Below, piece after piece: positions 12,044 through 53,040 of a stretch of 64,000 nt of DNA; the stretch's first letter is position 1; every line of letters starts with the position of its first letter. The position numbers and the translations under genes were made by a program. The notes below the pieces were generated by a model. It did no database searches. It saw only the letters and a program-made list of their open reading frames with translations, and was not told the DNA's origin. This DNA is from Mycoplasmatota bacterium. GTDB lineage: Bacteria; Bacillota_I; Bacilli_A; RF39; UBA660. The stretch lies in NCBI GenBank assembly GCA_022771205.1, contig JALFCF010000003.1, positions 64,269 to 128,268 on the forward strand. The letters run 5' to 3'.

Positions 12044-12508
12044 TTATTTAAATATAGATAAACTTTTAGATAAAACTTTTTTTCTATTGTTTTTATAATA
12101 AGTAATAGACTCGTAAAAACTATTAAGTTTAGCTAAACTATTTTGAATAGTAATAATTTCTTCTTCTGAAACATTAATAGAGCGCATTGTAAAATCACGA
12201 TAAATAGAAGGACTAACTCCCATATTTTTTCGAAATATTTCAGAATAATATTCTAAAGAAACAAATCCATGATTTAGTCCAACAGATAAAATAGATAAAT
12301 TATGTTCTCTTAAGTCTTTTAATGAATAAAAAATACGTAGACGATTAATATATTCAGTAATAGTACAATGTATTTCTTTTTTAAATAATCTCATAATATA
12401 ATCTTTATTAAAATAAAAACGTTCACTTAATTCATCCATAGATATTTTTCTATTAATATTTTGATCAATAAAATCTAAAATATCACAGACTAAATCATTA
12501 GAAAACAT
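12044..12508 (-). CDS. AraC-family HTH transcriptional regulator (short)
   Basis: SMDELSERFYFNKDYIMRLFKKEIHCTITEYINRLRI ... GFVSLEYYSEIFRKNMGVSPSIYR: two HTH motifs. Confidence 0.9.
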   Translation of the reverse strand: MFSNDLVCDILDFIDQNINRKISMDELSERFYFNKDYIMRLFKKEIHCTITEYINRLRIFYSLKDLREHNLSILSVGLNHGFVSLEYYSEIFRKNMGVSPSIYRDFTMRSINVSEEEIITIQNSLAKLNSFYESITYYKNNRKKVLSKSLSIFK

Positions 12509-12601
12509 ATCATCACCAAGTTCATTATACTACAAAAAGTCGTTATTGTTTAAATAAATATTAAAAATATATGATTAACTATAAGTGAAAGGAGAGATAA
12601 T

Positions 12602-13936
12602 ATGCAATATGCAAGATGGGCAACCAAAGAAGAAATAAAAGAAAGATTATTACCAATAAATTTAAAGGAAGGAGTAAAAGAAGTAGGTATTCCACTAATG
12701 TATGAAGGTGATACTATGTATGTAGATAAATATAGAGCTCATACATTACTAATTGGAGCAACGGGTTCTGGTAAAACACAAACAACTATATTACCAATAA
12801 TAAATTTAGCTATGAAAGCAAATGAATCACTTTTTGTAATAGATCCAAAAAGTGAAATGTATAAAAGAACAGCTAATCAATTAGAAAAAGAAGGATATAA
12901 AGTAACAGTTATTGATTTTGAAAATACCACTCTAGGTAACAACTGGAATCCATTATCTTTAGCATACCAAGTATATAAAGAAGGAAATAAAGATAAAGCT
13001 CAAGATATGGTAGAAGAAATTGGGTACTACTTATTTAGTGAAGAAACAAATAAACCAACAGATCCATTCTGGTTAAACGCAACAACTGATTATTTTACAG
13101 GATTAACATTATATTTATTTGAAAACTATGAAGAAAATCAAATTAATTTAAGTAATGTTGTAATGTTATCAAATGAAATATCAGGAGAAAATTCTCTAGA
13201 ATTTTTAGAAAAGTTAGATATACATTCAACAATCTACTTAAATTTAGTAACAACATTAAAGGCACCAGCTGAAACTAAAGGAAGTATTCTATCAGTATTC
13301 CAACAAAGTATAAAACCATATGTTTCTAGAGAAAATTTATCAAATCTGTTATCAACAACAGACACAAGTTATGAAGATTTATTATCAACTAAATCAGCAA
13401 TATTTATAGTAACAGAATCATCAACTATTGCTAAAAGATTAACACCACTATATATTAGTCAATTATTAGAAAGTAAAGACTTATACAACAATAATAAACC
13501 ATTAAATATGTTACTAGATGAGTTTGGCAATATGTTAAAACTTAAAAACTTTACTACATTATTATCACGTGCTAGAGGATTAAATGTAGAAATAACTATG
13601 GTTATTCAAAACTATATGCAACTAGTTAATGTATATGGTAAAGAACAAACAGAAATGTTAAAGCTTTGTTTTGCTAATATTTTATACTTACTATCAAACG
13701 ATATTTATTCATTAGAAGAAATATCTAAAATGTGTGGAGAAGTATCAAAAGATGTTCCTTTAATTACAGTAGAAGAGTTAAAAACAATGAAACAATTCGA
13801 AGCTATTGTACTAACTCCAAGAGTATATCCATATAAAACAAAACTAATACCAAGCTATAAAATAGATTGGGGATACGAAACAGAAGAAAAAGACATACCA
13901 AAAAGAACTATCCAAAAAATATCATATATAAATTAA
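12602..13936 (+). CDS. VirD4/TraG-like type IV coupling protein family ATPase (orphan)
   Basis: HTLLIGATGSGKTQTTILPIINLAM, FVIDPKSEMYKRT, NPLSLA, LLDEFGNMLKL, VIQNYMQL motifs. Confidence 0.9.
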   Translation: MQYARWATKEEIKERLLPINLKEGVKEVGIPLMYEGDTMYVDKYRAHTLLIGATGSGKTQTTILPIINLAMKANESLFVIDPKSEMYKRTANQLEKEGYKVTVIDFENTTLGNNWNPLSLAYQVYKEGNKDKAQDMVEEIGYYLFSEETNKPTDPFWLNATTDYFTGLTLYLFENYEENQINLSNVVMLSNEISGENSLEFLEKLDIHSTIYLNLVTTLKAPAETKGSILSVFQQSIKPYVSRENLSNLLSTTDTSYEDLLSTKSAIFIVTESSTIAKRLTPLYISQLLESKDLYNNNKPLNMLLDEFGNMLKLKNFTTLLSRARGLNVEITMVIQNYMQLVNVYGKEQTEMLKLCFANILYLLSNDIYSLEEISKMCGEVSKDVPLITVEELKTMKQFEAIVLTPRVYPYKTKLIPSYKIDWGYETEEKDIPKRTIQKISYIN

Positions 13937-13951
13937 TAGGAGAGAAAAATA

Positions 13952-14384
13952 GTGAACGAGATTGAAATAAAAGTGAAAGTTAATAATAAAGAAGAACTAA
14001 TAAAAAATTGCAAGAAAAGGGTTGCGTTTTTTCAAAAGAAAAACATCAAATTGATACTATATTTTTAGATAAAACTGCTAAATATTTTATTATTACACAA
14101 GGAATGATTGTCTTAAGAATAAGAACAGACAATAATGAAAATTTCATAACCTTAAAGCAAAGAAAAGAATAGAAACCAAGTATAAAGAGTTTAATATCTG
14201 TATTGATGAAGTAAAAGAATTAGGAAGTTTTATTGAAATAGAAGTTTTAACAGAAAAAGAAGTGAAGGCTTCTATCTATGAAAAAGAAATGATTAATTTA
14301 TGTAAAGAATTAAAGATTGATACAACAGCAAGAGTAAATTCTCATTATGATACCATGATATATGAATTAAAGAGTAAGGAATAA
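13952..14384 (+). pseudogene. CYTH-domain protein, two frameshifts
   Basis: (V)NEIEIKVKVNNKEELIK / LQEKGCVFSKEKHQIDTIFLDKTAKYFIITQGMIVLRIR..ITLKQRK / IETKYKEFNICIDEV..FIEIEVLTEKE.. in three successive frames. Confidence 0.75.
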
Positions 14385-14500
14385 AAAAAGAAATAATATT
14401 AAAATTATTTCTTTTTCTTTTTTTTAAATAGAGTTCTATGCTTAGTTAAGTTTATAATAAAGCCTTATACTTTTAATTTCAATGGAAATTCAATTTTTTA

Positions 14501-15253
14501 TTAATAGATGAGTTTTCCATGAACGACTGTTCTGTCATCGTTTCCTGAACAAGTAGATAAGGTTATAATTTTATCTTGGTTAGTGACAGTACAAGGAAAG
14601 GAATATTTACTTCTGCTTTGTAAAATAGTAAGAAACTTTTCATATTCTTTATTAGTAGAAAAACTAGTTTTTAAATAATAAGTTTCTTTTTGAATAGTAT
14701 AAACACTAAACACTTCAAAAACATAGATTTTGTTTTCTGTATATAAATAGATATAATGAGTATCTTCATGGTAATAACTATCTTCTAACAATTCTTTTAA
14801 ACTACCAAACATAGTTCCTGTTAATCGATTATGCCCATAAATAATTGTATTTTTATCAAGAAAGTTAGGACTATTTCGATAATCCATAAATACCCATCCG
14901 GCATTATTTTCTTCTTTATCAAATGAGTGGTTCAAATAGTATTTATTATCACTTGTTTGAACAACAGGATAAGAGATTTTGCTTCCATCCACAACAAGAT
15001 ATGAAACAGTATCCGCATTTAGCTGTTTTAATCTTGAAAAATCAATATTCATAAATTTATATTTGTCCTCATAAATATCATTAGGATTAATATATTGTTC
15101 TACATCTTCCAAAAGTTCTTCATTATGTTTTTCATTATTGTAACGGGTCCATAAAAAGAATAATGTATAAACATTAAGACCTATAATTAAAAAAACAATA
15201 ATATAAAAAAATTTATGTTTATTTTTTTTCCTTTTCATAACATAAGCACCCAC
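14501..15253 (-). CDS. Class B sortase
   Basis: NADTVSYLVVDGSKISYPVVQTSDNKYYLNHSF, IIYGHN, ITLSTCSG..DDRTVVHGKL. Confidence 0.92.
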   Translation of the reverse strand: MGAYVMKRKKNKHKFFYIIVFLIIGLNVYTLFFLWTRYNNEKHNEELLEDVEQYINPNDIYEDKYKFMNIDFSRLKQLNADTVSYLVVDGSKISYPVVQTSDNKYYLNHSFDKEENNAGWVFMDYRNSPNFLDKNTIIYGHNRLTGTMFGSLKELLEDSYYHEDTHYIYLYTENKIYVFEVFSVYTIQKETYYLKTSFSTNKEYEKFLTILQSRSKYSFPCTVTNQDKIITLSTCSGNDDRTVVHGKLIY

Positions 15254-15403
15254 ACTTATTATATTAAAAAAACTAATTTTGGCAAGATATAATTTCGAAA
15301 TTAATTAAAGTTAAAGAAAAAAATAATAGAAACTTAAAATCTTATTGACTTTTTGCAACAAAACCACTAGGATAATAAGTATTCTTAAAGAAAGGAAGAG
15401 TTT

Positions 15404-18400
15404 ATGAAAGCAGTCAAGCTAAAAAGAAGGCTTAAAGGATTTGCCAAAAAAGCAAGTTATCTAGCTTTAGCGACAGTTACATTTTTTACTCAGTTTAATT
15501 TACCTCTTTTTATTAGTGCTTTATCATCAGATGTTCATTATGATATCAGTAGTGTAGCAGACCCTGATACGCAACACATTGAAAATGATTATACTGGTGA
15601 TCCACAAGATGATGGTAAAATATGGACTGATAAAACAGTAACACATATTGATGAAGACTTATTTGACATAACTCTATCAGCAGTTGGACAGTCTTTCGAA
15701 ACGAAATCAGTTGTTAGCGATGCTAAGAGCGTAGATGTAGTTTTCGTATTGGACATTTCAGGCAGTATGGAAGATAATGGGCGATATATCAGTATGACTA
15801 GTGCAGTTAATCAAGCAATTGGTACAATCATGAAAGCTAATGCAAAGAATAGAATAGGGATTGTAACTTTTAGTGGCGATAGCTCTACACTATTACCGCT
15901 AGACTCTTATCATACTACCGATAATAGTACAAACTATCTAAAACACGGAACAAAAGGTATGTATTTTAAAACTCCATATATTGCAACATCAGATGTCATA
16001 AGAGATAGCAATAATCAAAGAGAAAATGGTAATGTTGAAGTGGTTGGAGGTACCTATACACAAAAAGGTATGGATGCTGCTAAAGACATGCTAGAAGGAA
16101 CAAGCGATACAAAAGATAGAGTTCCTGTCGTTATTCTTTTATCAGACGGGATACCAACTTATGCAACTTCTAAATATGATAATGTTGGAAGTTCAGAATA
16201 TAATTTAGGAAATGGCCAAACAAATTCCTATACTGGAGATACTGGTTATTATACAATCTTAACTGGTATGGATAGTAAAGAAAAAATCGAAGCACACTAT
16301 AATACTGAAAGCAAGTATTATACTATTGGATTGGATATAGTAAATAACTTTGGCAAAGTTGTTTTAAATCCAACTAGAGATAACATTAATCAATTAAGTA
16401 ACAAAGGAAAAGAAGGAGATTTAAAAAATAAGTTAATGTTTTCTCCATATGATTACAATTATACAAATAAAGGTTATGCAGGTAATATGACAGGAGAAGA
16501 ATTAAATTCTATTTTAGAAGAAATCACTTCTGATATTATTTCAGGTACTTCATCTCCATTAGGTTCTAGTGATAATAGGACTATGATATTTACTGATACT
16601 CTTGGAAAAGGGGTGGAGGTAAAAGAAGCACCTAAAGTATTATTTGATGGCAAAGAATATGTTTCAACATCTACAAACAAAACTGAAAATTATACAGAAT
16701 ATGTTTATAATTATGCAGTAATAAATAGTAGTAATGAAGAAGCTAATTTAAGTGACTTACGTGTAAGAGTACATAATAATAATGGAAAACAAACTATTGA
16801 ATTCCAAATACCTAAAACACTATTCCCATTCTTAAATAGAGATAAAAATAATCCAGAAACTAGTGTAAATCCAATTCGTTTAATAACTAGAGTGGGATTA
16901 AGTGATGAAGCAGTGAAAATTGCTAGAACAGGAGATGTATTCTACACAAATGATTTAACAGATGAAGCACGTGTTACGTTCTCACCTGCAAGAGATAATC
17001 CATATTATTATGAAGATGTTGTTTACAATGATGATGGAACAGTAGCAAGTTCAACTCCAAAATATGATAATAAATCACTAGAAAAGAGTGAAAATTTAAC
17101 AGGAACAAGTAATACATATTACAGTACAAACTTCAATCATGAAACAGGAGTTGTAACAACAAAACTTGGTAATAATGGAAAAATGGTATTAATAGATCCA
17201 CAAGAGACTACAGAAAAAACAGTTTATAAAGATTGGCAAGATGGAGATAATCAAGATGGATTAAGAACTCCTATTGAAGTTGAATTATACGCAAATGGAG
17301 CTGCAACAGGTAAGAAAGCAACATTAACAGAAGAAAATGATTGGCAATATACTTTTGAAAATTTGAAGAAGTATACTAACAATCAAGAGATTGTTTATAC
17401 AGTAAGAGAGTTAACTCATATAGATGGTTATGAAACAACATACAGTGAAGATCATCTTACTATTATTAATAAGCATGAAGTGGAAACTATTAATAAAACC
17501 GTAACGAAAATATGGCAAGATAATAATAATCAAGATGGAATTCGTCCTACATCTGTAAGTGTTCAATTATATGCAAATGGTACACCAGAAGGAACACCAG
17601 TTACTTTAAGTGAACGTAATAACTGGCAATATACTTTTGAAAATTTAGATAAAAATGCTAATGGAAAACCAATTTCTTATACTGTAGAAGAAATCAGTAA
17701 CATAGAAGGCTATACTAGTGAAGTAGCTACTACTCAATCAGGAAATTTCAAAATTACAAATACTCATACAACAGAAAAGATTGCCAAGACAGCAATCAAA
17801 AAATGGGATGATAGAAATGATCAAGATGGAATTCGCCCAAGAAGTATTGAAGTTGAGTTATATGCAAATGGAAAAGCAACCGGTAAAAAAGCAACGTTGA
17901 GTACTAATAATAACTGGAGATATACATTCTCAAACCTAGAAAGAAATGATAATGGAAAAGCGATTGAATATTCAATAGTCGAATTAACTGATGTTTCAGG
18001 TTATACTTCATCTTATGAAGACGGCGATATGATGACAATTATAAACAAGCATACTCCAGAAGTTACACAAATAAATGTTGAAAAAAAATGGGATGATAAA
18101 AACAATCAAGATGGAATTCGCCCAAGCCAAATAACAATTACATTACTTGCAAATGGTGAAACCAAAGCTACAAGAGTAATAACAGCTAAAGATAATTGGA
18201 AAACTTCATTTACGAATCTTCCAAAAAATGCTTCAGGCAAAGAAATAAAGTATACGGTTACAGAAAATCCAATTGAAGGTTATACTCTTTCTTCAACTGT
18301 TAAACACGATAATACTATCACATTGACAAATTCTTATACACCAGAAGTAACTTCAAAAACAGTTACTAAAGAGTGGAAAGACAATAACAATCAAGATGGT

Positions 18401-20245
18401 ATAAGACCAGAGTACATTGAAGTACAACTTTATGCTAATGACAATAAGACAGGTTCTCCAGTACAGTTAAATGAAAGTAACCAATGGACATATACTTTTG
18501 CCAATCTTGATAAAAATCAAGCTGGAAAAGAGATAAAATATACTGTAGAAGAAGTAAATGTTCCAAATGGATACACTGTATCTTATAAAGATGATACATT
18601 TACAATTATCAATACTCACTATGCAGATACTATGGATATTCCAGTACAAAAAGTTTGGTTGGATGAAAATAATCTAGAAGGATTTAGACCGAATTCAATT
18701 ACTGTAGAGTTACATGAGAAAGGTTCACAAACAGTAGTAGATACTATTACTTTAGATGCAAGAAGAAATTGGAAGGGCACTTTCCACGATGTAGCTGTAA
18801 ATAAAAATGGTCAAAAAATTGAATATGAAGTAAAAGAAGTAAATGTTCCAGAAACATACAAAGTGTCTTATAGTAAAGACGGAAATACTTTTGTTATTAC
18901 AAATGAAAGAAATATTGAAACTATAGAAAAAACTGTAACTAAAGTTTGGAATGACAATAATAACCAGGATGGAATTAGAGCTAATAGTATTAAAGTTCAA
19001 CTATATCAAAATGGTGTAGCCTACGGTGACGAAATAACTTTATCTGATTCTAACACTTGGACATACCACTTTACTAACTTACCAAAGTATAAAGATGGAA
19101 AGCTAGCCAATTATACAGTACAAGAACTTAGTGAGATAGCAGGATACTATACAACATATAGTGAAGATACTTTTACAATTACAAATACCCACACTCCAGA
19201 GACTACTAATATTCAAGTGAAAAAAATTTGGGATGATAACAATAATCAAGATGGCATTAGACCAAATGAAGTAATCATACTTTTATTAGCTAATGGAGAA
19301 GTAAGGGATAATATTACATTAACTAAAGATAATTGGTCTGGAAGCTTTGAAAATGTTCCAGTATATCAAAATGGAAAAAAGATTATATATACAGTTAGAG
19401 AACAAGATGTACCAACTGGATATAGTGTAGTGTATGGAAATGATCAAGACGGTGTCTTTACTGTTACTAATGTACATACTCCAGAAAAAACTTCTGTAGT
19501 AGCAGAAAAAGTATGGAATGATATGAATAATAAAGATAATCTTCGCTCTGACTATATTACAGTTAATTTACTCGCTAATGGAAAAGTAATAAAAACAATT
19601 TATTTAAGTAACGACAATAATTGGCAAGAACAAATTAATGGACTAGATAAATATTTTAATGGGGAGTTAATTGAATATACATTATCAGAAATATCAAAAA
19701 TAGCAGGCTATGAAACAACCTATAGTAGTGATACATTTACAATTGTTAACAACCATAAAATTATATCAGTAACCAAAGAGGTAGATAAAAAACAAGCAAA
19801 ACCAGGAGAAATCTTAACTTATACAATCACAGTATCTAATGACGGTGATGTTGATGCAGAAAATATTGTTGTAGTAGATAAATTAAATGAAAATTTAGAA
19901 TTTATTTCTAGCACAGAAGGAATTTATGATTCAAGTACTCACACTGTAACTTATAATATTAATTCTTTACTTGCTGGAGATAAAAAAATATTTATTCTTA
20001 CAGTAAAAATAAATGAGAATGTAAAAGAAGATACTTATATTGGAAATGTAGCTTTAGTTTTAGGTGATGATGGGGAAGATGTACCTTCTAACGAGGTAAT
20101 AACTAAGGTAGAAGTACCACCAACAGACGAAGCTTTTGAAAATCCAGAAACATCTGATGATATTAGCATAATTTTACTAACAGGAATATTAAATACAATG
20201 ATGTTTGGTTATCTTATTATAAGAAAAAGATTAAGAAACGCCTAA
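15404..20245 (+). CDS. Cell-surface adhesin: signal peptide, vWA domain, nine Cna-B repeats, DUF11-like domain, NPETSD sorting-type C-terminus
   Basis: DVVFVLDISGSMED (MIDAS DxSxS); nine KxWxDxxNQDGIRP-type repeat starts; C-term ENPETSDDISIILLTGILNTMMFGYLIIRKRLRNA. Confidence 0.93.
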   Translation: MKAVKLKRRLKGFAKKASYLALATVTFFTQFNLPLFISALSSDVHYDISSVADPDTQHIENDYTGDPQDDGKIWTDKTVTHIDEDLFDITLSAVGQSFETKSVVSDAKSVDVVFVLDISGSMEDNGRYISMTSAVNQAIGTIMKANAKNRIGIVTFSGDSSTLLPLDSYHTTDNSTNYLKHGTKGMYFKTPYIATSDVIRDSNNQRENGNVEVVGGTYTQKGMDAAKDMLEGTSDTKDRVPVVILLSDGIPTYATSKYDNVGSSEYNLGNGQTNSYTGDTGYYTILTGMDSKEKIEAHYNTESKYYTIGLDIVNNFGKVVLNPTRDNINQLSNKGKEGDLKNKLMFSPYDYNYTNKGYAGNMTGEELNSILEEITSDIISGTSSPLGSSDNRTMIFTDTLGKGVEVKEAPKVLFDGKEYVSTSTNKTENYTEYVYNYAVINSSNEEANLSDLRVRVHNNNGKQTIEFQIPKTLFPFLNRDKNNPETSVNPIRLITRVGLSDEAVKIARTGDVFYTNDLTDEARVTFSPARDNPYYYEDVVYNDDGTVASSTPKYDNKSLEKSENLTGTSNTYYSTNFNHETGVVTTKLGNNGKMVLIDPQETTEKTVYKDWQDGDNQDGLRTPIEVELYANGAATGKKATLTEENDWQYTFENLKKYTNNQEIVYTVRELTHIDGYETTYSEDHLTIINKHEVETINKTVTKIWQDNNNQDGIRPTSVSVQLYANGTPEGTPVTLSERNNWQYTFENLDKNANGKPISYTVEEISNIEGYTSEVATTQSGNFKITNTHTTEKIAKTAIKKWDDRNDQDGIRPRSIEVELYANGKATGKKATLSTNNNWRYTFSNLERNDNGKAIEYSIVELTDVSGYTSSYEDGDMMTIINKHTPEVTQINVEKKWDDKNNQDGIRPSQITITLLANGETKATRVITAKDNWKTSFTNLPKNASGKEIKYTVTENPIEGYTLSSTVKHDNTITLTNSYTPEVTSKTVTKEWKDNNNQDGIRPEYIEVQLYANDNKTGSPVQLNESNQWTYTFANLDKNQAGKEIKYTVEEVNVPNGYTVSYKDDTFTIINTHYADTMDIPVQKVWLDENNLEGFRPNSITVELHEKGSQTVVDTITLDARRNWKGTFHDVAVNKNGQKIEYEVKEVNVPETYKVSYSKDGNTFVITNERNIETIEKTVTKVWNDNNNQDGIRANSIKVQLYQNGVAYGDEITLSDSNTWTYHFTNLPKYKDGKLANYTVQELSEIAGYYTTYSEDTFTITNTHTPETTNIQVKKIWDDNNNQDGIRPNEVIILLLANGEVRDNITLTKDNWSGSFENVPVYQNGKKIIYTVREQDVPTGYSVVYGNDQDGVFTVTNVHTPEKTSVVAEKVWNDMNNKDNLRSDYITVNLLANGKVIKTIYLSNDNNWQEQINGLDKYFNGELIEYTLSEISKIAGYETTYSSDTFTIVNNHKIISVTKEVDKKQAKPGEILTYTITVSNDGDVDAENIVVVDKLNENLEFISSTEGIYDSSTHTVTYNINSLLAGDKKIFILTVKINENVKEDTYIGNVALVLGDDGEDVPSNEVITKVEVPPTDEAFENPETSDDISIILLTGILNTMMFGYLIIRKRLRNA
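17211..19759 (+). repeat. Nine tandem Cna-B-type repeat units within the adhesin (~280 bp each)
   Basis: Repeat starts read from the translation: KTVYKDWQDGDNQDGLRT, KTVTKIWQDNNNQDGIRP, KTAIKKWDDRNDQDGIRP, NVEKKWDDKNNQDGIRP, KTVTKEWKDNNNQDGIRP, PVQKVWLDENNLEGFRP, KTVTKVWNDNNNQDGIRA, QVKKIWDDNNNQDGIRP, VAEKVWNDMNNKDNLRS. Confidence 0.9.
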
Positions 20246-20288: not shown

Positions 20289-20821
20289 TTTATTAATTAT
20301 ATAAAAGTAGTAGATGAAGTGGGTGGTATTACATACTGTTATGATCAAGCTTTCACTACAACACATGCCTTAATATTAAATGATTACAACGACTATGGTA
20401 AGAAAAAATTATATGTAAAAAAAGATGTCAAGAATTAAATGGTATCGAAACTCTTACTGTTGCTCGTGAAAGAAATGCTTTTGTCGGAAGAGATAGAATG
20501 AGACAAAAGAATTGTCAAAAAATTATCATTGCTATTTTTGATAAATTAAAAAGTACTAATTTGATTACAAATTATAATAAAATACTAGAAGCATTAGGGG
20601 ATACTTACTCAACAAACATTCCAAAAGAATTGATAACAAATATTGCAAAAGATACAATGGATGGAGCGGAATGGAAATTTATTACTCAATCAGTTGACGG
20701 TTCTGATAAATGGGATGCAGATATTGCAATATTAAATGATAAGGGTTATGCAATGATTCCAAATACAGATGATGTAGTAAATGCAACAAACAAAATGAAT
20801 GAAATTTTAAATAAAAAATAG
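20289..20821 (+). pseudogene. LytR-CpsA-Psr (LCP) family remnant: N-terminus missing plus frameshift
   Basis: YIKVVDEVGGITYCYDQAFTT... / ELNGIETLTVARERNAFVGRDRMRQKNCQKIIIAIFDKL. Confidence 0.8.
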
Positions 20822-20860
20822 GAAAAAATTCTTCTATTTTTTTTATATTATATATTTACA

Positions 20861-20884
20861 TATATTAACACATATGTTAATATA
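20861..20884. promoter_or_regulatory. Perfect inverted repeat, candidate operator of the downstream toxin-antitoxin-like pair
   Basis: TATATTAACA-CATA-TGTTAATATA, 48 bp upstream of ATG 20932. Confidence 0.6.
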
Positions 20885-20931
20885 GAGATGAGTATGAAAT
20901 GGAGGTGGATGAGTAGGAGAGGAGTGAAAAA

Positions 20932-21270
20932 ATGAATATAATATATACAAAAAGCTATGACAATACGGTAAAGAAATTAAAACGCCGCAAAAAGGAATGT
21001 GATAATTTAGAAGATATAAAGAGCAAGATTACGAATCACAATACATTTAAAGAAATAGAAATGAATCCAATTATGACGACAATTTACGATTTTGAAGCGT
21101 TGAAATATCAAAATAGTGGATTTTGGTCTTTTAATTTAGAAAAACATGGTGGAGTAATAAGATTAATAGTAATGCCATCAGACAAAGAAGACGAAATTAT
21201 TTTTGTATATATAAGTTATGATCATTATAAAGATTTTACTCCTGATAGACTCAAATTTTATGATGAATAA
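20932..21270 (+). CDS. RelE/HigB-superfamily-like toxin (RmrT-like)
   Basis: Small basic protein IIYTKSYDNTVKKLKRRKK...GFWSFNLEKHGGVIRLIVMPSDKEDEIIFVYISYDHYKDF; overlapped by an HTH-ImmA/IrrE gene. Confidence 0.65.
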   Translation: MNIIYTKSYDNTVKKLKRRKKECDNLEDIKSKITNHNTFKEIEMNPIMTTIYDFEALKYQNSGFWSFNLEKHGGVIRLIVMPSDKEDEIIFVYISYDHYKDFTPDRLKFYDE

Positions 21271-22291
21271 ATTTGGTAAAGAACTAGGCGAATTTTTAGA
21301 ATGTAAAAATATAAGTATAAAAGAATTTGCAGATAGAATTAATACAACCTCTAAAAACTTAATTGATATCATAAAAGGGAATATAGAATTATCCCAAAAT
21401 ATGATTTACAATATTTCTTTCATTACTGATATTCCAGTAAATTATATAGAAAATGTAGAAAAAAATTATAAAATGGATAAAACAATAAATCTTTATTTAG
21501 AAGAAAATAATTTAACAATAAGAAAGTATATTAATAAATTTAATTATAAAGAACTATCTGATAAATATCATGTAGTATATAGAGATTGTAGAAATGATTA
21601 TTCAATTGCAAAAGATATATTAAAATATTTAAGAATTACAAATCCTAATACTTTAACAAAAGAAAATAATGTAATTTTTTATAAAAGTAAAAATGATAAA
21701 CCAGAATTATTAGCATTATGGTTAGAAAGATGCAATAGAATTATAGAAAATCAAAAAGTAGAAGAATATAATAAGGAAAATATTAATATTTTAGTAAAAT
21801 TTATAAAATCAGAAGCTAGTACTAATAGTTTTAATGAAGAAAAATTAATAAAAGAATTTAATAAAAATGGAATATTTTTAGCCATAGAAGATGATTTAAA
21901 AGGTACTAAAGTAAGAGGCGCATTTAAAGTATTAAATGATAAACCAGCAATCTTTCTAACTAAAAAACATAAAAGATACGCTGATATCTACTTTGCATTA
22001 TTACATGAGCTTGCTCATTGTAAAAGTGATTTTAATAGGGCTAAAAGCGGTAGTATTATTGCTTTAAACGATGAAACGGAAACAGAAGATTATGAAATAA
22101 AAGCAGATAAACAGGCTTTAAATTGGATGATTGATGATAAATTGTATGATAATATAAAAATAAATTGTAATAATATAGAAAACTATAATATTGTAAAATC
22201 ATTTTTTGTATATCGCCTAGCAAAAGATAAAATAATTAATTATAGTAATGAATTATATCAAAAATATAATCCATTAATAGATAAAGAATAA
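21260..22291 (+). CDS. XRE-HTH + ImmA/IrrE-type zinc metallopeptidase (RmrA-like antitoxin/regulator)
   Basis: N-terminal HTH (ISIKEFADRINTTSKNLIDIIKGNIELS) and HExxH (LLHELAHCKSDF); start overlaps the preceding ORF. Confidence 0.85.
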   Translation: MMNKFGKELGEFLECKNISIKEFADRINTTSKNLIDIIKGNIELSQNMIYNISFITDIPVNYIENVEKNYKMDKTINLYLEENNLTIRKYINKFNYKELSDKYHVVYRDCRNDYSIAKDILKYLRITNPNTLTKENNVIFYKSKNDKPELLALWLERCNRIIENQKVEEYNKENINILVKFIKSEASTNSFNEEKLIKEFNKNGIFLAIEDDLKGTKVRGAFKVLNDKPAIFLTKKHKRYADIYFALLHELAHCKSDFNRAKSGSIIALNDETETEDYEIKADKQALNWMIDDKLYDNIKINCNNIENYNIVKSFFVYRLAKDKIINYSNELYQKYNPLIDKE

Positions 22292-22312
22292 AATTATAAA
22301 GTACTAAGAATC

Positions 22313-22349
22313 AGACTATTAACAATAAAACTAGTTGATAGTCTTTTTA
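22313..22349 (+). terminator. Rho-independent terminator
   Basis: AGACTATTAAC ... GTTGATAGTCT + T5. Confidence 0.7.
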
Positions 22350-22411
22350 TTATCTAAAGAAAATGTTGAATATTCAAAAAGAAGCAATTATAATAAATCC
22401 GAGGTGTTATT

Positions 22412-25400
22412 ATGAAAAAGAAAAAAGTAGTAGTAAACGATATTCAGAAGGATTGCCATGATATTATCTCGCTAGCGCCTAAATATGATGAAGATATTAA
22501 ACAATATGAAGACATAATAACTTCTGCATTATCAGAATTAGAACATCCTAAAACAAAAAAGAAAAAAAATAAAAATATCGCAATTACAGGAATTTATGGA
22601 GCAGGCAAAAGTACAGTAATCCGAAGTTATTTTAATTTGAAAGAAGAAGACGTATGTTACGTTACCTTGGGATATTATAGTAGTAAGGAAGATACTAATA
22701 TAGTAGAAGAAACTATTGAAGAAGTAAAACAAGATAAAAAAGAAGTGGAATCAAAGACTATTAAAAAGAAAGTTTATACTGATGATGAAATAGAAAAGGG
22801 TATTCTTCAACAAATTCTATATTCCAAAAGACCAGGAATAATATCCCATTCCAGATTTTCTAGAATAGATAAGTTTGAAGATTTATGTAGTGAACTTCTT
22901 TTTTCGTTTACAGCTGCTTTTTTTATAGTACTACTGATCAATTGGTTCTATTCGTATATATCGAATAACAATTTTATATCATTGCTATCTAAACTATCAT
23001 TTTGGATTACATTAATACTATCCACAATTTTTGGTGGTGTTCTAATCCTAATGATTTTAAGAGGACTATTGAAAATAAATAAATTTACATTCCATAATTT
23101 AGAAATAGGAAAAAATAAAAATGACGAATCTGTATTAAATAATAATATAGATGAATTGCTTCACTTTTTCTTATATAACAAAGAAAGTATTGTGGTTTTT
23201 GAAGACTTAGATCGTTTACCCAATGCGATAGAAGTATTCTCAAAATTAAAAGAAATAAATGCAATTTTAAATTCATCTATAGAAAACAAAACAATTCAAT
23301 TTATTTATGTTACTGGTGATAGTATATTTAAAAATGGAGAAGATAGAACTAAGTTTTTTGATATAATAATACCAATTGTTCCACTAGTAAGTAATATGAA
23401 TGCCAAAAGTTATTTATTATCAAAGAAGATTGATATATTTTCAGATATAGAAGAAGCAAATATAAAGACAGTTAGCAAATATATAAAAGATTATAGACAA
23501 GCAAATGATATCATTAATGAATATAGAATATACTTAAATAATTATATGGAAAGAATAGACAGTGGTTATAATAATAATTTACTCCTTCAAGATAAGAATC
23601 AGTTGTTTTATTTAATAGCATATAAAGTCTTGTATCCATATAATTTTAGTCGTCTATTTGATGATAGAAGAAGTAATGTAATTGATTGTGTAATTTTTGT
23701 TTATTATAATGATACTGAAGAATTTTTAACCAATAAATTAAAAGAAATTGAAGACCCAATAATCATAGAAATGAAAAGTATAGGAAAAGAAATTGAAGAA
23801 AAATCTAAAAAACTTTATTTTGATGGTAAAGAAATAAATCTAAATTTATCTAATCCAACTCAAACTGATGTGAATAAATTTACACTTAAGTTTACGCAAA
23901 ACAAGCCTTTATATTTGGTAAATCTAAATAAAGAAAAAGAAATTATTGAAGAAAAAAAATTATACACGGATTATCAAAAATGGAATTCAAAACTTATTGA
24001 TTATAGATTAAATGAAAAAATTTCAATAATAAATGAAAAAATTACACATTATGAAAACGAAAATAATATTAAGTTTAATGATTTTGAAAAAGAATTGATA
24101 GAAAATAATGTGATAAACGAAAATTATAAAAGATTGTTAACCTATAATTTTGAATCTCTATTAAATCTATCTGATGAAAGATATGTAGAAGAATTGCCAG
24201 TAGGAAATTATATTGATTCTAAATATAAGTTGATAGATGTAAAAAAGGTATATAAAAACTTAACAGATAAAAGTTTTACTTATAACAAAATTTGCGTAGA
24301 TGATTTATTTATGTATATGAATGAAAATAATATAGCAGACGCAGCCTATAAAATGAGAATATTTTTGGAGAATATGAATGACTATAGATTTCAATATATT
24401 TTAAAATTTACTTTAAGCAATGCGAAGAATAGTATAATTAGAAAAAATCCAGAACTAATAAATTATTTATGGGACTATGCAGAGGGATTGAATGTTTCAG
24501 GTGAATTGATAATAAAATTAATAATATTTACTTTGCAATATTGTAAGACGGAAGAAATAGATGACAAAAGTCACTTTTATATTTGTATAAATACCCTCGA
24601 ACATTTAGATGATATATTCGAAGAAAATTTAGATAATATTCAAAGCGGATTATTAAACACATTAGTAAAATTTAATAGGGAATGTGAATATAATCCTATG
24701 AATATAAATTTTCTTAATTTTATTTATGAAAATAAAAGGTTTTATGGAAATATAGAATTAATAATTGCTATTATAAAATCAAGAGGTATTTCAGTTAACA
24801 ATAAAAATTTTATGACAATAGTTTATAATAACAAAGAAGAGCTATATAATTTATATGAATATATAGGACCTTTATTTAAAAAGTTTTTTGAAGAATGTAT
24901 AGACCAAATAATATCATTAGAAAATAGTGATGAAGTAATACAAGATATTCTATCAAGCCAAATTGCTTCAATAGAACAAAAAAGGCGATATCTAAACTAC
25001 GAAAAAGGTAAAATTCATAATTTGACAACAATCGATTATATATTTTTACCATATATAGTAAAAAACAATATATATGAGCTTAATTGGGAGAATTTATTAT
25101 ATATATTAAATGGTAATTATGATAAATATAATGAATTAAATATTTTAGAAAAAACATTTAAAGTTTTACAAGACAACATAAGAAAATTAGTTGTTGAGCC
25201 CTTGTCTGACTCAAAAAAGATTATATTAACAGATATAGTTTTAAATAAAGTCGGTACAGAGACTTCAGAAGCAAAAGAAGTATATCTATCAAACAAAGAT
25301 TTAGTAGTATGCTTGATAAATAATTCATATTTAATAACAGATAATGTTAGCACAGCAGCTCAAATATATAAATTCCAGTTTGAAATAGAAAAGAAACAGA

Positions 25401-25720
25401 TAAACCAATTTTTAAAGAATAGTTTTAAGTATTTTAAGGATAATATTTCTAATAATATTGATGAGAGGTTATTAGAAGATATATTGAGCATTAATCTTTC
25501 AAGACAAAAAAGATTAGATTTTTATCTAAATTATCAACATATATATAATGACAATATAAATAAAAAATTATTTAAAATATTAATAGATGGAGAAAATTTA
25601 AAAATATCAAATAAAAATTTAATAAATATTTTAAGTAGATTTGAATACAAAGAGTACTTTGAAATATCAGAAAAATATCATGATACTAACAAAATAAGCG
25701 ACGAAAATTATAAAGAATAA
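22412..25720 (+). CDS. YobI-like / KAP-type membrane P-loop NTPase
   Basis: Walker A ITGIYGAGKSTVIRSY; two TM segments; Walker B SIVVFEDLDRLPN; FIYVTGDSIFKNGEDRTKFFDIIIPIVPLVSNMNA. Confidence 0.8.
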   Translation: MKKKKVVVNDIQKDCHDIISLAPKYDEDIKQYEDIITSALSELEHPKTKKKKNKNIAITGIYGAGKSTVIRSYFNLKEEDVCYVTLGYYSSKEDTNIVEETIEEVKQDKKEVESKTIKKKVYTDDEIEKGILQQILYSKRPGIISHSRFSRIDKFEDLCSELLFSFTAAFFIVLLINWFYSYISNNNFISLLSKLSFWITLILSTIFGGVLILMILRGLLKINKFTFHNLEIGKNKNDESVLNNNIDELLHFFLYNKESIVVFEDLDRLPNAIEVFSKLKEINAILNSSIENKTIQFIYVTGDSIFKNGEDRTKFFDIIIPIVPLVSNMNAKSYLLSKKIDIFSDIEEANIKTVSKYIKDYRQANDIINEYRIYLNNYMERIDSGYNNNLLLQDKNQLFYLIAYKVLYPYNFSRLFDDRRSNVIDCVIFVYYNDTEEFLTNKLKEIEDPIIIEMKSIGKEIEEKSKKLYFDGKEINLNLSNPTQTDVNKFTLKFTQNKPLYLVNLNKEKEIIEEKKLYTDYQKWNSKLIDYRLNEKISIINEKITHYENENNIKFNDFEKELIENNVINENYKRLLTYNFESLLNLSDERYVEELPVGNYIDSKYKLIDVKKVYKNLTDKSFTYNKICVDDLFMYMNENNIADAAYKMRIFLENMNDYRFQYILKFTLSNAKNSIIRKNPELINYLWDYAEGLNVSGELIIKLIIFTLQYCKTEEIDDKSHFYICINTLEHLDDIFEENLDNIQSGLLNTLVKFNRECEYNPMNINFLNFIYENKRFYGNIELIIAIIKSRGISVNNKNFMTIVYNNKEELYNLYEYIGPLFKKFFEECIDQIISLENSDEVIQDILSSQIASIEQKRRYLNYEKGKIHNLTTIDYIFLPYIVKNNIYELNWENLLYILNGNYDKYNELNILEKTFKVLQDNIRKLVVEPLSDSKKIILTDIVLNKVGTETSEAKEVYLSNKDLVVCLINNSYLITDNVSTAAQIYKFQFEIEKKQINQFLKNSFKYFKDNISNNIDERLLEDILSINLSRQKRLDFYLNYQHIYNDNINKKLFKILIDGENLKISNKNLINILSRFEYKEYFEISEKYHDTNKISDENYKE

Positions 25721-25967
25721 CTGTACAAAATGTACAGTTATTATATTAATTAAAATGATTATAAATATAATATAAGTGATATACTAATAAAAAGGGGAAG
25801 ATACTATGTGGAAAGGAATAATTGTAGTAATTATTATTATACTAGTATTATTTCTTTTCTGTGCCCTTAAATTAGCAAGTATTTCTGATGATAATGATAA
25901 TAAAAAACAAATCTGTTTTACAGATTTTTTATTTTGTATTATACTGAAAACAAGTATGGAGGAAGTT

Positions 25968-26858
25968 ATGAATAAGACATTTTCAATTATTGAAATAGGT
26001 AGTAATAATACTAAAACACATGTATATGAGAATGATAAAGTTTTATATGATACTACAACGACAATAGAATTTAAAAAGAATTATGCTAAAGAAGGAAAAA
26101 TATTAGAAGAAGATTTAAACAAATTATATAAAGTAATAGAACAAGTTAAAAATTATACAGATAATATTTATTTATATGGATGTAGTATTTTTAGAAAATT
26201 AAGTGAAGAAGAGTTAAATACTATAAACAAAGATTTAAAAGATAAATATAATTTAGAAGTAGAAGTAGTATCTCAAGAAAAAGAGGCAGAGTATACTGCG
26301 TTAGGCTGCTATGATGATATTGATTATAAGGACAATATTTGTATATTTATTGGTGGAGGAGGTTCTATTGAACTTATCTTCGTTAAAAATAAAAAGATTA
26401 TTGATAAAAAATATTATAGTTTTGGAGTAGTAGATATTACTAAGAAATTCCCAAGTTTAAAAGATGATAAACCAACTTGTACATTTGATGAAGTATATAA
26501 CTATATTTCTACTTTGATTACTGATATTAATCAAACTGCAGATGTATTAATATTAGCTGGAGGAGATCACTTATATTGGTATAATAATGCAGAATATAAA
26601 TTAGAAAAAAACACTCTATATGATAGTAATAATCAACCATATATGTTAACTAGAGAACAAAGCGATGAATATGATAAGGATGCTTTAATTACATCATTAA
26701 ATAGAATTAGAAATAATAGTGATAATCCTGTATGGTTTGATGGATCACGTGCAATGAAAGTAATAACTAATTATATTTCTCATAAAGTATCTGCTAAATA
26801 TATAATTCCTACTAGAATAAATATGGAAGATGGATTAAAAGATAGTATAAGTGAATAA
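25968..26858 (+). CDS. Ppx/GppA-type exopolyphosphatase family protein
   Basis: FSIIEIGSNNTKTHVYEN ... ICIFIGGGGSIELIFVKNKKII; RBS ggaggaag before ATG 25968 (track ORF starts at 25806 through an upstream small ORF). Confidence 0.8.
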   Translation: MNKTFSIIEIGSNNTKTHVYENDKVLYDTTTTIEFKKNYAKEGKILEEDLNKLYKVIEQVKNYTDNIYLYGCSIFRKLSEEELNTINKDLKDKYNLEVEVVSQEKEAEYTALGCYDDIDYKDNICIFIGGGGSIELIFVKNKKIIDKKYYSFGVVDITKKFPSLKDDKPTCTFDEVYNYISTLITDINQTADVLILAGGDHLYWYNNAEYKLEKNTLYDSNNQPYMLTREQSDEYDKDALITSLNRIRNNSDNPVWFDGSRAMKVITNYISHKVSAKYIIPTRINMEDGLKDSISE

Positions 26859-51945: not shown

Positions 51946-52818
51946 TTATTGATATAATTCCTGTCTAATATAATCAAGATTATTATTCATAATATTAATA
52001 TAAGTAAGTTTGTTAGAACGGTCATCATCAGAAAGATTATTTAATTTATGTAAATTCTGACGTTTTAAATCAGAGTAAGTATTTAATAAGTCTTTAGCTG
52101 TATCATTTAAAGAATCACCTTCAAAAGTATAAATATAACTAATATCACCATCTTCAATCATAGCTTCTGCATCGCTAATAGTTTTTGGAGAGGCATCATT
52201 ATCAATACAAATAACATTAAGTCCAAACTTTTCAAGATATTTAAGTGTTGAATTAGCAACAACTATAGTATTATCACTAGCATTTTCAACTGCTAAGCGA
52301 TAATCAGCATCAAGTTCAGAAAGTTCAACTTTCAAATCTTCATAAGCTTTATCAATACTTTTCTTAATATAGTTACTAGTAATATATTCATCTAATCCTA
52401 ATCGAACATTTTGAGCCATCATAAGTAGTGAAGAAGGATTAAGCCATAACTCTTCAGGTGAATAATCAGTTTCTAGTACATAAGCAGTATCAATGATTTT
52501 TAAATCAGGATTTAAATCAAGTAAATCGAAAGCCAAATTACTTTCTTTTTCAATTAATCCATTATAAATAAATAAATCGTATTGACTAAAATCTTTTTTT
52601 TGCTTATTACTAATTTTATATTTAGCAGTATCAACTCCATCTGGATAAACTGCAGTAATACTTGAATGATCACCATATAATTTTTCTGTAATATACTCAT
52701 TAGGGTAATTAGTAACTAATATGCGAATGTCATCCATATCATCTTGTTTACAACCAGTTGTTGCAAAAATTGCAGTAATAAATAATATAAATAGTAATAA
52801 AATCTTTTTGCTTTTCAT
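51946..52818 (-). CDS. Zinc/metal-ABC substrate-binding-like lipoprotein (ZnuA/TroA-like), internal start
   Basis: [25 protein letters not shown] lipobox-type signal peptide; [32 protein letters not shown] 52818 preceded by gaggagaaaaaga. Confidence 0.8.
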
Positions 52819-53040
52819 TCTTTTTCTCCTCACTTTAGGAACCGGATCATAACCAAATTTGCCAAAAGGATGACATCTCAATATTCTTTTAATACCAAGA
52901 TACACACCATAACAAACCCCGTGTATTTCAATTGCTTCAATCATATAATTAGAACAAGTAGGAATAAACCGACATTGTTTGTGAATGTTACTTGGTATTT
53001 TTTGATATATGTGTATAAGTCCAATCAGCATCCTCTTCAT
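52819..53040 (-). CDS. yidD: YidD-family membrane protein insertion efficiency factor, in frame with the downstream lipoprotein
   Basis: [61 protein letters not shown]; no stop before the lipoprotein ATG. Confidence 0.9.

What the first reader, a model, noticed from the sequence alone, without database searches (positions are those of the whole stretch)
20861..25720. Candidate defence locus: RelE-like toxin + HTH-ImmA/IrrE + YobI/KAP-type membrane NTPase
Seen: a small RelE-like ORF overlaps an HTH/HExxH (LLHELAH) gene. After a terminator-like hairpin comes an 1102-aa NTPase with Walker A GIYGAGKST, two TM helices and Walker B VFEDLDRLPN, plus a long C-terminal region without recognised domains. 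Known: RelE-like/XRE-COG2856 pairs resemble the anti-phage RosmerTA type, and KAP/YobI NTPases recur in defence and mobile contexts. Inference: the trio may act together, with a soluble TA-type sensor coupled to a membrane ATPase effector. It sits beside a truncated LCP gene, consistent with an insertion-prone site. I am not aware of this trio being described as one system.
Basis: partly seen in the sequence, partly recalled or inferred. Interest (0 to 1): 0.65.

Follow-up and report, generated by a model that had tools for sequence, protein, structure and literature searches.

The report
Two stacked, separate phage-defence-type modules
The three genes are a toxin-antitoxin pair plus an unrelated membrane ATPase of the Tmn kind, added separately at the same chromosomal spot; both kinds were already known, and nothing shows that they form one new system.

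Summary
In detail: a RelE-superfamily ORF (A, 20932-21270) overlaps an HTH/HExxH gene (B, 21260/21263-22291). A strong hairpin follows, then an 1102-aa YobI/KAP NTPase (N, 22412-25720) with two hydrophobic segments between Walker A and B.

The trio reading does not hold. Five congeners carry A-B (B 80-82% identical) without N; there B's stop codon is followed almost at once by the terminator-like hairpin that follows N here. A sixth congener has neither module. So N was added (or elsewhere lost) separately, with its own hairpin and leader. Over 392 genomes of the phylum, N-type and B-type genes are adjacent only here. Of 41 further B loci, two have a divergent NTPase within 10 kb, never next to the pair.

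A-B is a PD-lambda-2/COG2856-type toxin-antitoxin. A has a YoeB/YafQ-like predicted fold and invariant Arg77, His98, Tyr99. B keeps its zinc motif. A TTAAC-N6-GTTAA palindrome overlies the promoter and recurs in 12 of the 13 closest loci. A is broken or deleted in 12 of 36 loci where B stays open, which suggests A is the toxin. N is a Tmn-like NTPase.

These are new members of known kinds; joint action of the trio is unlikely (about 5%).

The parts
20301..20821 (+). 3' remnant of an LCP (LytR-CpsA-Psr) gene, frameshifted near 20402-20423; the 5' two thirds are missing
   Evidence: tblastn of the 479-aa LCP of congener G009: residues 307-347 in one frame, 341-479 in another, 83-84% identity; NCBIfam LCP_trans_Cps2A on the ORF
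20855..20883 (+). promoter-like TTTACA-17-TAATAT before A
   Evidence: pattern scan (such matches are at chance level overall), supported by conservation of the stretch in congeners
20865..20880 (.). palindrome TTAACACATATGTTAA, inferred operator of A-B
   Evidence: only exact TTAAC-N6-GTTAA in the window; conserved before A or B in 12 of the 13 closest loci
20932..21270 (+). A: RelE-superfamily (YoeB/YafQ-like) toxin, 112 aa
   Evidence: AlphaFold pLDDT 83.7; Foldseek best hits YafQ and YoeB, E 3e-4; invariant Y52, R77, H98, Y99 in 18 homologues
21260..22291 (+). B: Xre-type HTH fused to ImmA/IrrE-like zinc peptidase; inferred antitoxin and repressor
   Evidence: PADLOC PD-Lambda-2_B 67 bits; HExxH invariant in 9 homologues; relatives hit HTH_3 and Peptidase_M78
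22281..22291 (+). 11-bp direct repeat ATAAAGAATAA, left copy (end of B)
   Evidence: second copy at 25710-25720; may be chance
22313..22350 (+). hairpin with T-run between B and N (terminator-like)
   Evidence: -11.7 kcal/mol, z -4.8; lies within the stretch absent from pair-only congeners
22366..22394 (+). promoter-like TTGAAT-17-TATAAT before N
   Evidence: pattern match only (count in region not above shuffles)
22412..25720 (+). N: YobI/KAP-type, Tmn-like membrane NTPase, 1102 aa; Walker A at residue 60, hydrophobic segments within about 157-223, Walker B at 262
   Evidence: PF20693 248 bits; PADLOC Tmn 116 bits over residues 50-579; motif and hydropathy positions
25710..25720 (+). 11-bp direct repeat ATAAAGAATAA, right copy (end of N)
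   Evidence: may be chance
25716..25742 (.). terminator-like hairpin that follows LCP, B or N directly in the three versions of the site

Best explanation
The locus is two independent modules stacked at one insertion-prone site, between the end of an LCP gene and its terminator. Module 1 (A-B) is an autoregulated type II toxin-antitoxin: A is a YoeB/YafQ-like, probably ribosome-dependent mRNase, and B is an Xre-HTH repressor and antitoxin fused to an ImmA/IrrE-like zinc peptidase. B (with A) is inferred to bind the TTAAC-N6-GTTAA palindrome over the promoter; infection or stress would make B be cleaved or let go, so that A stops translation. Module 2 (N) is a Tmn-like membrane KAP/YobI NTPase, gained separately and expected to act alone; the inferred mechanism is that its C-terminal helical region senses a phage product and an ATP-driven rearrangement at the membrane blocks the infection. 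Shown here: separability of the modules, predicted fold and invariant residues of A, the conserved palindrome, the one-sided decay of A, the family matches of B and N. Inferred: biochemical activities, triggers and any phage phenotype.
For: Three versions of one site in one genus: neither module (G003), A-B only (G004, G006, G007, G009, G014), A-B-N (window); in the pair-only genomes the stretch after B aligns to the window right after N. N has its own leader and hairpin. YobI and B genes adjacent only in the window among 392 genomes. 41 further B loci: two divergent NTPases within 10 kb, not adjacent. A. B. Operator. A decayed in 12 of 36 loci with B open. N; relatives of N on plasmids without A-B.
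Against: No experiment. NTPases lie within 10 kb of B loci more often than a rough random expectation (2 against 0.03), so some association of neighbourhoods exists. B shows no Pfam hit over cut-off itself. The Tmn match covers only the first half of N, and the model of N is poor. The sampling of decayed A genes went through B.
Confidence: 0.8

Rival explanations
1. One three-gene defence system: A-B senses infection and the membrane NTPase N is its effector.
For: Same strand and direct adjacency in the window; two more B loci with a Tmn-like NTPase within 10 kb, above a rough random expectation.
Against: Five congeners keep A-B without N at the same site; no other adjacency in 392 genomes; the other two NTPases are 27-36% identical and separated by other genes; hairpin before N and no shared operator; plasmid relatives of N lack the pair.
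Confidence: 0.05
2. A-B is a stress or addiction-type toxin-antitoxin without any role against phages, and only N is a defence gene.
For: RelE with COG2856-Xre pairs were first described as a general toxin-antitoxin class (PMC2701414); A decays often, as expected of a selfish or dispensable module.
Against: Nearest named model is the anti-phage PD-Lambda-2_B; ImmA-type antitoxins are common in RosmerTA anti-phage systems (PMC10440598); the loci are often near defence genes such as AbiLi/AbiLii or a type IV restriction enzyme.
Confidence: 0.35
3. Within the pair the roles are reversed, as reported for PD-lambda-2: B (HTH-peptidase) is the toxin and A neutralises it.
For: Published overexpression result for PD-lambda-2 B and A (PMC9519451).
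Against: B is open with A broken or deleted in 12 of 36 loci, including deletions of A that keep the palindrome before B (L138, L140); no A without B in 118 genomes; A keeps the catalytic Arg, His, Tyr of YoeB.
Confidence: 0.12

Closest known systems
PD-lambda-2 (Vassallo et al. 2022, PMC9519451)
   Same: Gene order: HigB/RelE-like first, then Xre-HTH fused to a peptidase; B matches the PD-Lambda-2_B model with 67 bits
   Different: A does not match any PADLOC model; no third component C was found after B; decay pattern suggests A, not B, is the toxin
RelE / COG2856-Xre type II toxin-antitoxin class (Makarova et al. 2009, PMC2701414)
   Same: RelE-family gene next to an HTH-zinc-peptidase fusion gene, mobile and patchy distribution
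   Different: Nothing essential
RosmerTA (RmrT/RmrA)
   Same: HTH plus ImmA-type peptidase antitoxin next to a toxin gene (PMC10440598)
   Different: Much weaker match of B (RmrA 27 bits); the RmrT studied in that paper depolarises membranes, whereas A has a predicted mRNase fold
Tmn (anti-phage KAP-family NTPase; PMC11846954) and Pfam YobI-ATPase PF20693
   Same: P-loop NTPase with two transmembrane segments inserted between Walker A and B; PF20693 248 bits, Tmn 116 bits
   Different: Match to Tmn covers only the first half; C-terminal 500-600 residues diverged; 1102 against 1273 model positions
YoeB and YafQ mRNA interferases
   Same: Predicted fold of A (YafQ TM-score 0.64 by query, 0.78 by target) and invariant Arg/His/Tyr as in the YoeB active site
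   Different: Partner gene is an HTH-peptidase instead of YefM or DinJ; the general-base Glu of YoeB is not strictly conserved among the homologues

Membership tests
PD-lambda-2 | HigB-like component A first | tested here: inconclusive
   RelE-superfamily fold by AlphaFold and Foldseek, closer to YafQ/YoeB than to HigB; no PADLOC model matches A
PD-lambda-2 | Xre-HTH fused to peptidase (B) | tested here: met
   PD-Lambda-2_B 67 bits over residues 44-318; HExxH invariant
PD-lambda-2 | Third component C (P4-antitoxin-like), required for defence against lambda | tested here: not met
   Next gene is the NTPase N here; in pair-only congeners a terminator-like hairpin follows B; no shared third gene seen in the listed neighbours of 41 loci. 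No model of C was run on the neighbours
Type II toxin-antitoxin, RelE/COG2856-Xre class | RelE-fold toxin gene overlapping or abutting an HTH-zinc-peptidase gene | tested here: met
Type II toxin-antitoxin, RelE/COG2856-Xre class | Autoregulation through an operator over the promoter | tested here: inconclusive
   Conserved palindrome over the promoter; binding not testable here
Type II toxin-antitoxin, RelE/COG2856-Xre class | Toxicity of one gene neutralised by the other | not testable with these tools
   Indirect: one-sided decay of A
RosmerTA | RmrA-type antitoxin as best match | tested here: not met
   RmrA 27 bits against PD-Lambda-2_B 67 bits
Tmn / YobI-ATPase | YobI-type P-loop NTPase domain | tested here: met
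   PF20693 248 bits, cut-off 27
Tmn / YobI-ATPase | Two transmembrane segments inserted in the NTPase domain | tested here: met
   Hydropathy peaks within about 157-223, between Walker A at 60 and Walker B at 262
Tmn / YobI-ATPase | Full-length match to Tmn | tested here: not met
   Match ends at residue 579 of 1102, model position 597 of 1273
Tmn / YobI-ATPase | Anti-phage activity as a single gene | not testable with these tools
   No experiment
Proposed trio as one system | Recurrent adjacency of A-B and N in different genomes | tested here: not met

The most novel reading that the evidence does not exclude
After N was inserted at B's stop codon, the pair and the NTPase came to work together as a new composite system in this lineage, with B's sensing also affecting N through read-through or protein contact.
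Probability: 0.05. Interest if true: 0.6.

Novelty: new member of a known kind. Interest (0 to 1): 0.28.

Why it matters
It shows how two neighbouring defence-type modules can look like one system, and how empty, pair-only and pair-plus-NTPase versions of one site within a genus settle the question. A side result may interest toxin-antitoxin specialists: the one-sided decay of A under an intact B suggests that A is the toxin in this branch, opposite to the reported behaviour of PD-lambda-2 and simple to test.

Tried and rejected
Pattern scans of genome contigs with N alone and of viral contigs with B alone found no relatives; alignment queries worked for B. phmmer of A, B and N against PDB sequences gave nothing useful for A and N and one weak regulator match for B; the A4 profile gave weak HigB/YoeB hits below an apparent chance match to the TasA anchoring protein. 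The AlphaFold model of N was too poor (pLDDT 62, pTM 0.35), so no fold search was run on it. Control of N by B through a shared operator was rejected: the exact palindrome occurs once in the window, at A. Phage origin of B was considered: only three distant phage records and seven distant viral contigs hold B-like genes. The paper defining KAP NTPases was not held.

Full report
WHAT IS THERE. Searches confirm the ORFs. A (20932-21270) overlaps B, whose start by alignment is 21260/21263. A hairpin with a T-run (about 22313-22350, z -4.8) separates B from N (22412-25720). N is followed at once by a second terminator-like hairpin (25716-25742). To the left is a frameshifted remnant of an LCP gene; to the right a small membrane ORF and a Ppx/GppA-like gene.

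GENE A. No curated family passes its cut-off; the best is Txe/YoeB at 14 bits. An AlphaFold model from six homologues is good (pLDDT 83.7). Its best solved neighbours are YafQ and YoeB, with HigB and RelE further down. In 18 homologues only Tyr52, Arg77, His98 and Tyr99 are invariant. In YoeB, Arg65, His83 and Tyr84 serve catalysis on the ribosome (PMC3814384). I equate Arg77, His98 and Tyr99 with these by fold and order; this is an inference, since no residue-level structural superposition was made. The general-base Glu of YoeB is not strictly conserved in this family.

GENE B. PADLOC's PD-Lambda-2_B model matches with 67 bits, RmrA with only 27. A relative at about 36-38% identity passes HTH_3 and Peptidase_M78 cut-offs. 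The HExxH motif is invariant in nine homologues. RelE genes next to COG2856-Xre fusions were described as a toxin-antitoxin class in 2009 (PMC2701414).

REGULATION. A palindrome TTAACACATATGTTAA overlies a promoter-like stretch before A (20855-20883). It is the only exact TTAAC-N6-GTTAA in 64 kb and is present upstream in 12 of the 13 closest loci. In L138 and L140, where A is deleted, it sits directly before B. Autoregulation by B is inferred. N has no such site.

POLARITY. Of 38 B loci examined, two are cut by contig ends upstream. Of the other 36, A is frameshifted, stopped or deleted in 12, and B is open in all (Fisher p about 2e-4). The sampling went through B, so open B genes are favoured, the loci are not independent, and some frameshifts in metagenome assemblies may be errors; the deletions are not of that kind. 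A search for A in 118 genomes found no A without B. This suggests that A is the toxin. It contrasts with PD-lambda-2, where overexpressed B was toxic and A rescued it (PMC9519451).

GENE N. YobI-ATPase scores 248 bits and Tmn 116 bits over the first half. Hydrophobic segments lie between Walker A (residue 60) and Walker B (262). The C-terminal part is predicted helical, at low confidence. Tmn is a KAP-family NTPase with two transmembrane domains and anti-phage activity of unexplored mechanism (PMC11846954).

ARE THEY ONE SYSTEM? Three states of the site exist in one genus. G003: LCP stop codon, hairpin, small ORF, Ppx, with neither module. G004, G006, G007, G009, G014: LCP, A, B, then very soon a related hairpin and a related small ORF, without N. 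In G007 A is frameshifted. Window: LCP remnant, A, B, N, hairpin. N is therefore separable. It sits between B's stop and the hairpin, bracketed by an 11-bp repeat ATAAAGAATAA that may be chance. In 392 genomes of the phylum, YobI genes over cut-off occur in 21, B-type genes in 26, both in four (expected 1.4; p 0.04 with the window's genome, 0.13 without it), adjacent only in the window. Among 41 B loci from genome contigs, two (L135, L139) have a Tmn-like NTPase within 10 kb, about 3 kb from the pair with other genes between, 27-36% identical to N. That exceeds a rough random expectation of 0.03. I read it as shared variable, defence-rich surroundings: L139 also has AbiLi/AbiLii and L148 a type IV restriction enzyme, and 18 of the 41 loci hold an LCP or glycan-cluster gene. 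Four plasmid relatives of N have restriction, VapBC, an ATP-dependent endonuclease or no defence neighbours, and no A-B pair. Two plasmid relatives of B are annotated RelE/ParE + HigA pairs without an NTPase.

VERDICT. Observation confirmed; families mostly correctly guessed; the trio as one system is not supported. These are two known kinds of module, stacked by separate events next to a capsule-type gene cluster. Phage defence is plausible for both by family and is untested.

Noticed in passing
25806-26858: In congener G003 the small membrane ORF (MWKG...) ends at a stop codon before the Ppx/GppA-like gene; in the window that codon reads CAA, so both run as one 350-aa ORF, across a terminator-like stretch. 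Probably two genes, or a recent stop-codon loss.
   Followed up: partly
12044-20245: Left of the LCP remnant lies a block (AraC-like regulator, VirD4/TraG-like ATPase, sortase, 1613-aa surface protein with nine Cna_B repeats and a VWA domain), partly shared with congener G013 (L053), that seems to have replaced most of the LCP gene and the glycan cluster.
   Followed up: partly
L034 7930-8685, L036 1221-1976, L038 4944-5693: Three pair-only congeners share a conserved gene of about 250 aa (GINNNLYNSAGLTLE...) downstream of the pair and its hairpin; function not examined.
   Followed up: no
51946-53040: One 364-aa ORF on the minus strand seems to join a YidD-like N-terminus to a zinc-ABC-transporter-type binding lipoprotein (my reading of the sequence; not tested).
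   Followed up: no
L037 3419-4663 and 4943-6256: Two neighbouring copies of what looks like the same aminoacyl-tRNA synthetase gene in congener G009, near insertion-sequence genes.
   Followed up: no
L112 6430-8294, L113 6791-8688, L139 11354-13209: AbiLi/AbiLii-type (AAA plus RloB) gene pairs recur beside Tmn-like NTPases in three loci, more often than the A-B pair does.
   Followed up: partly
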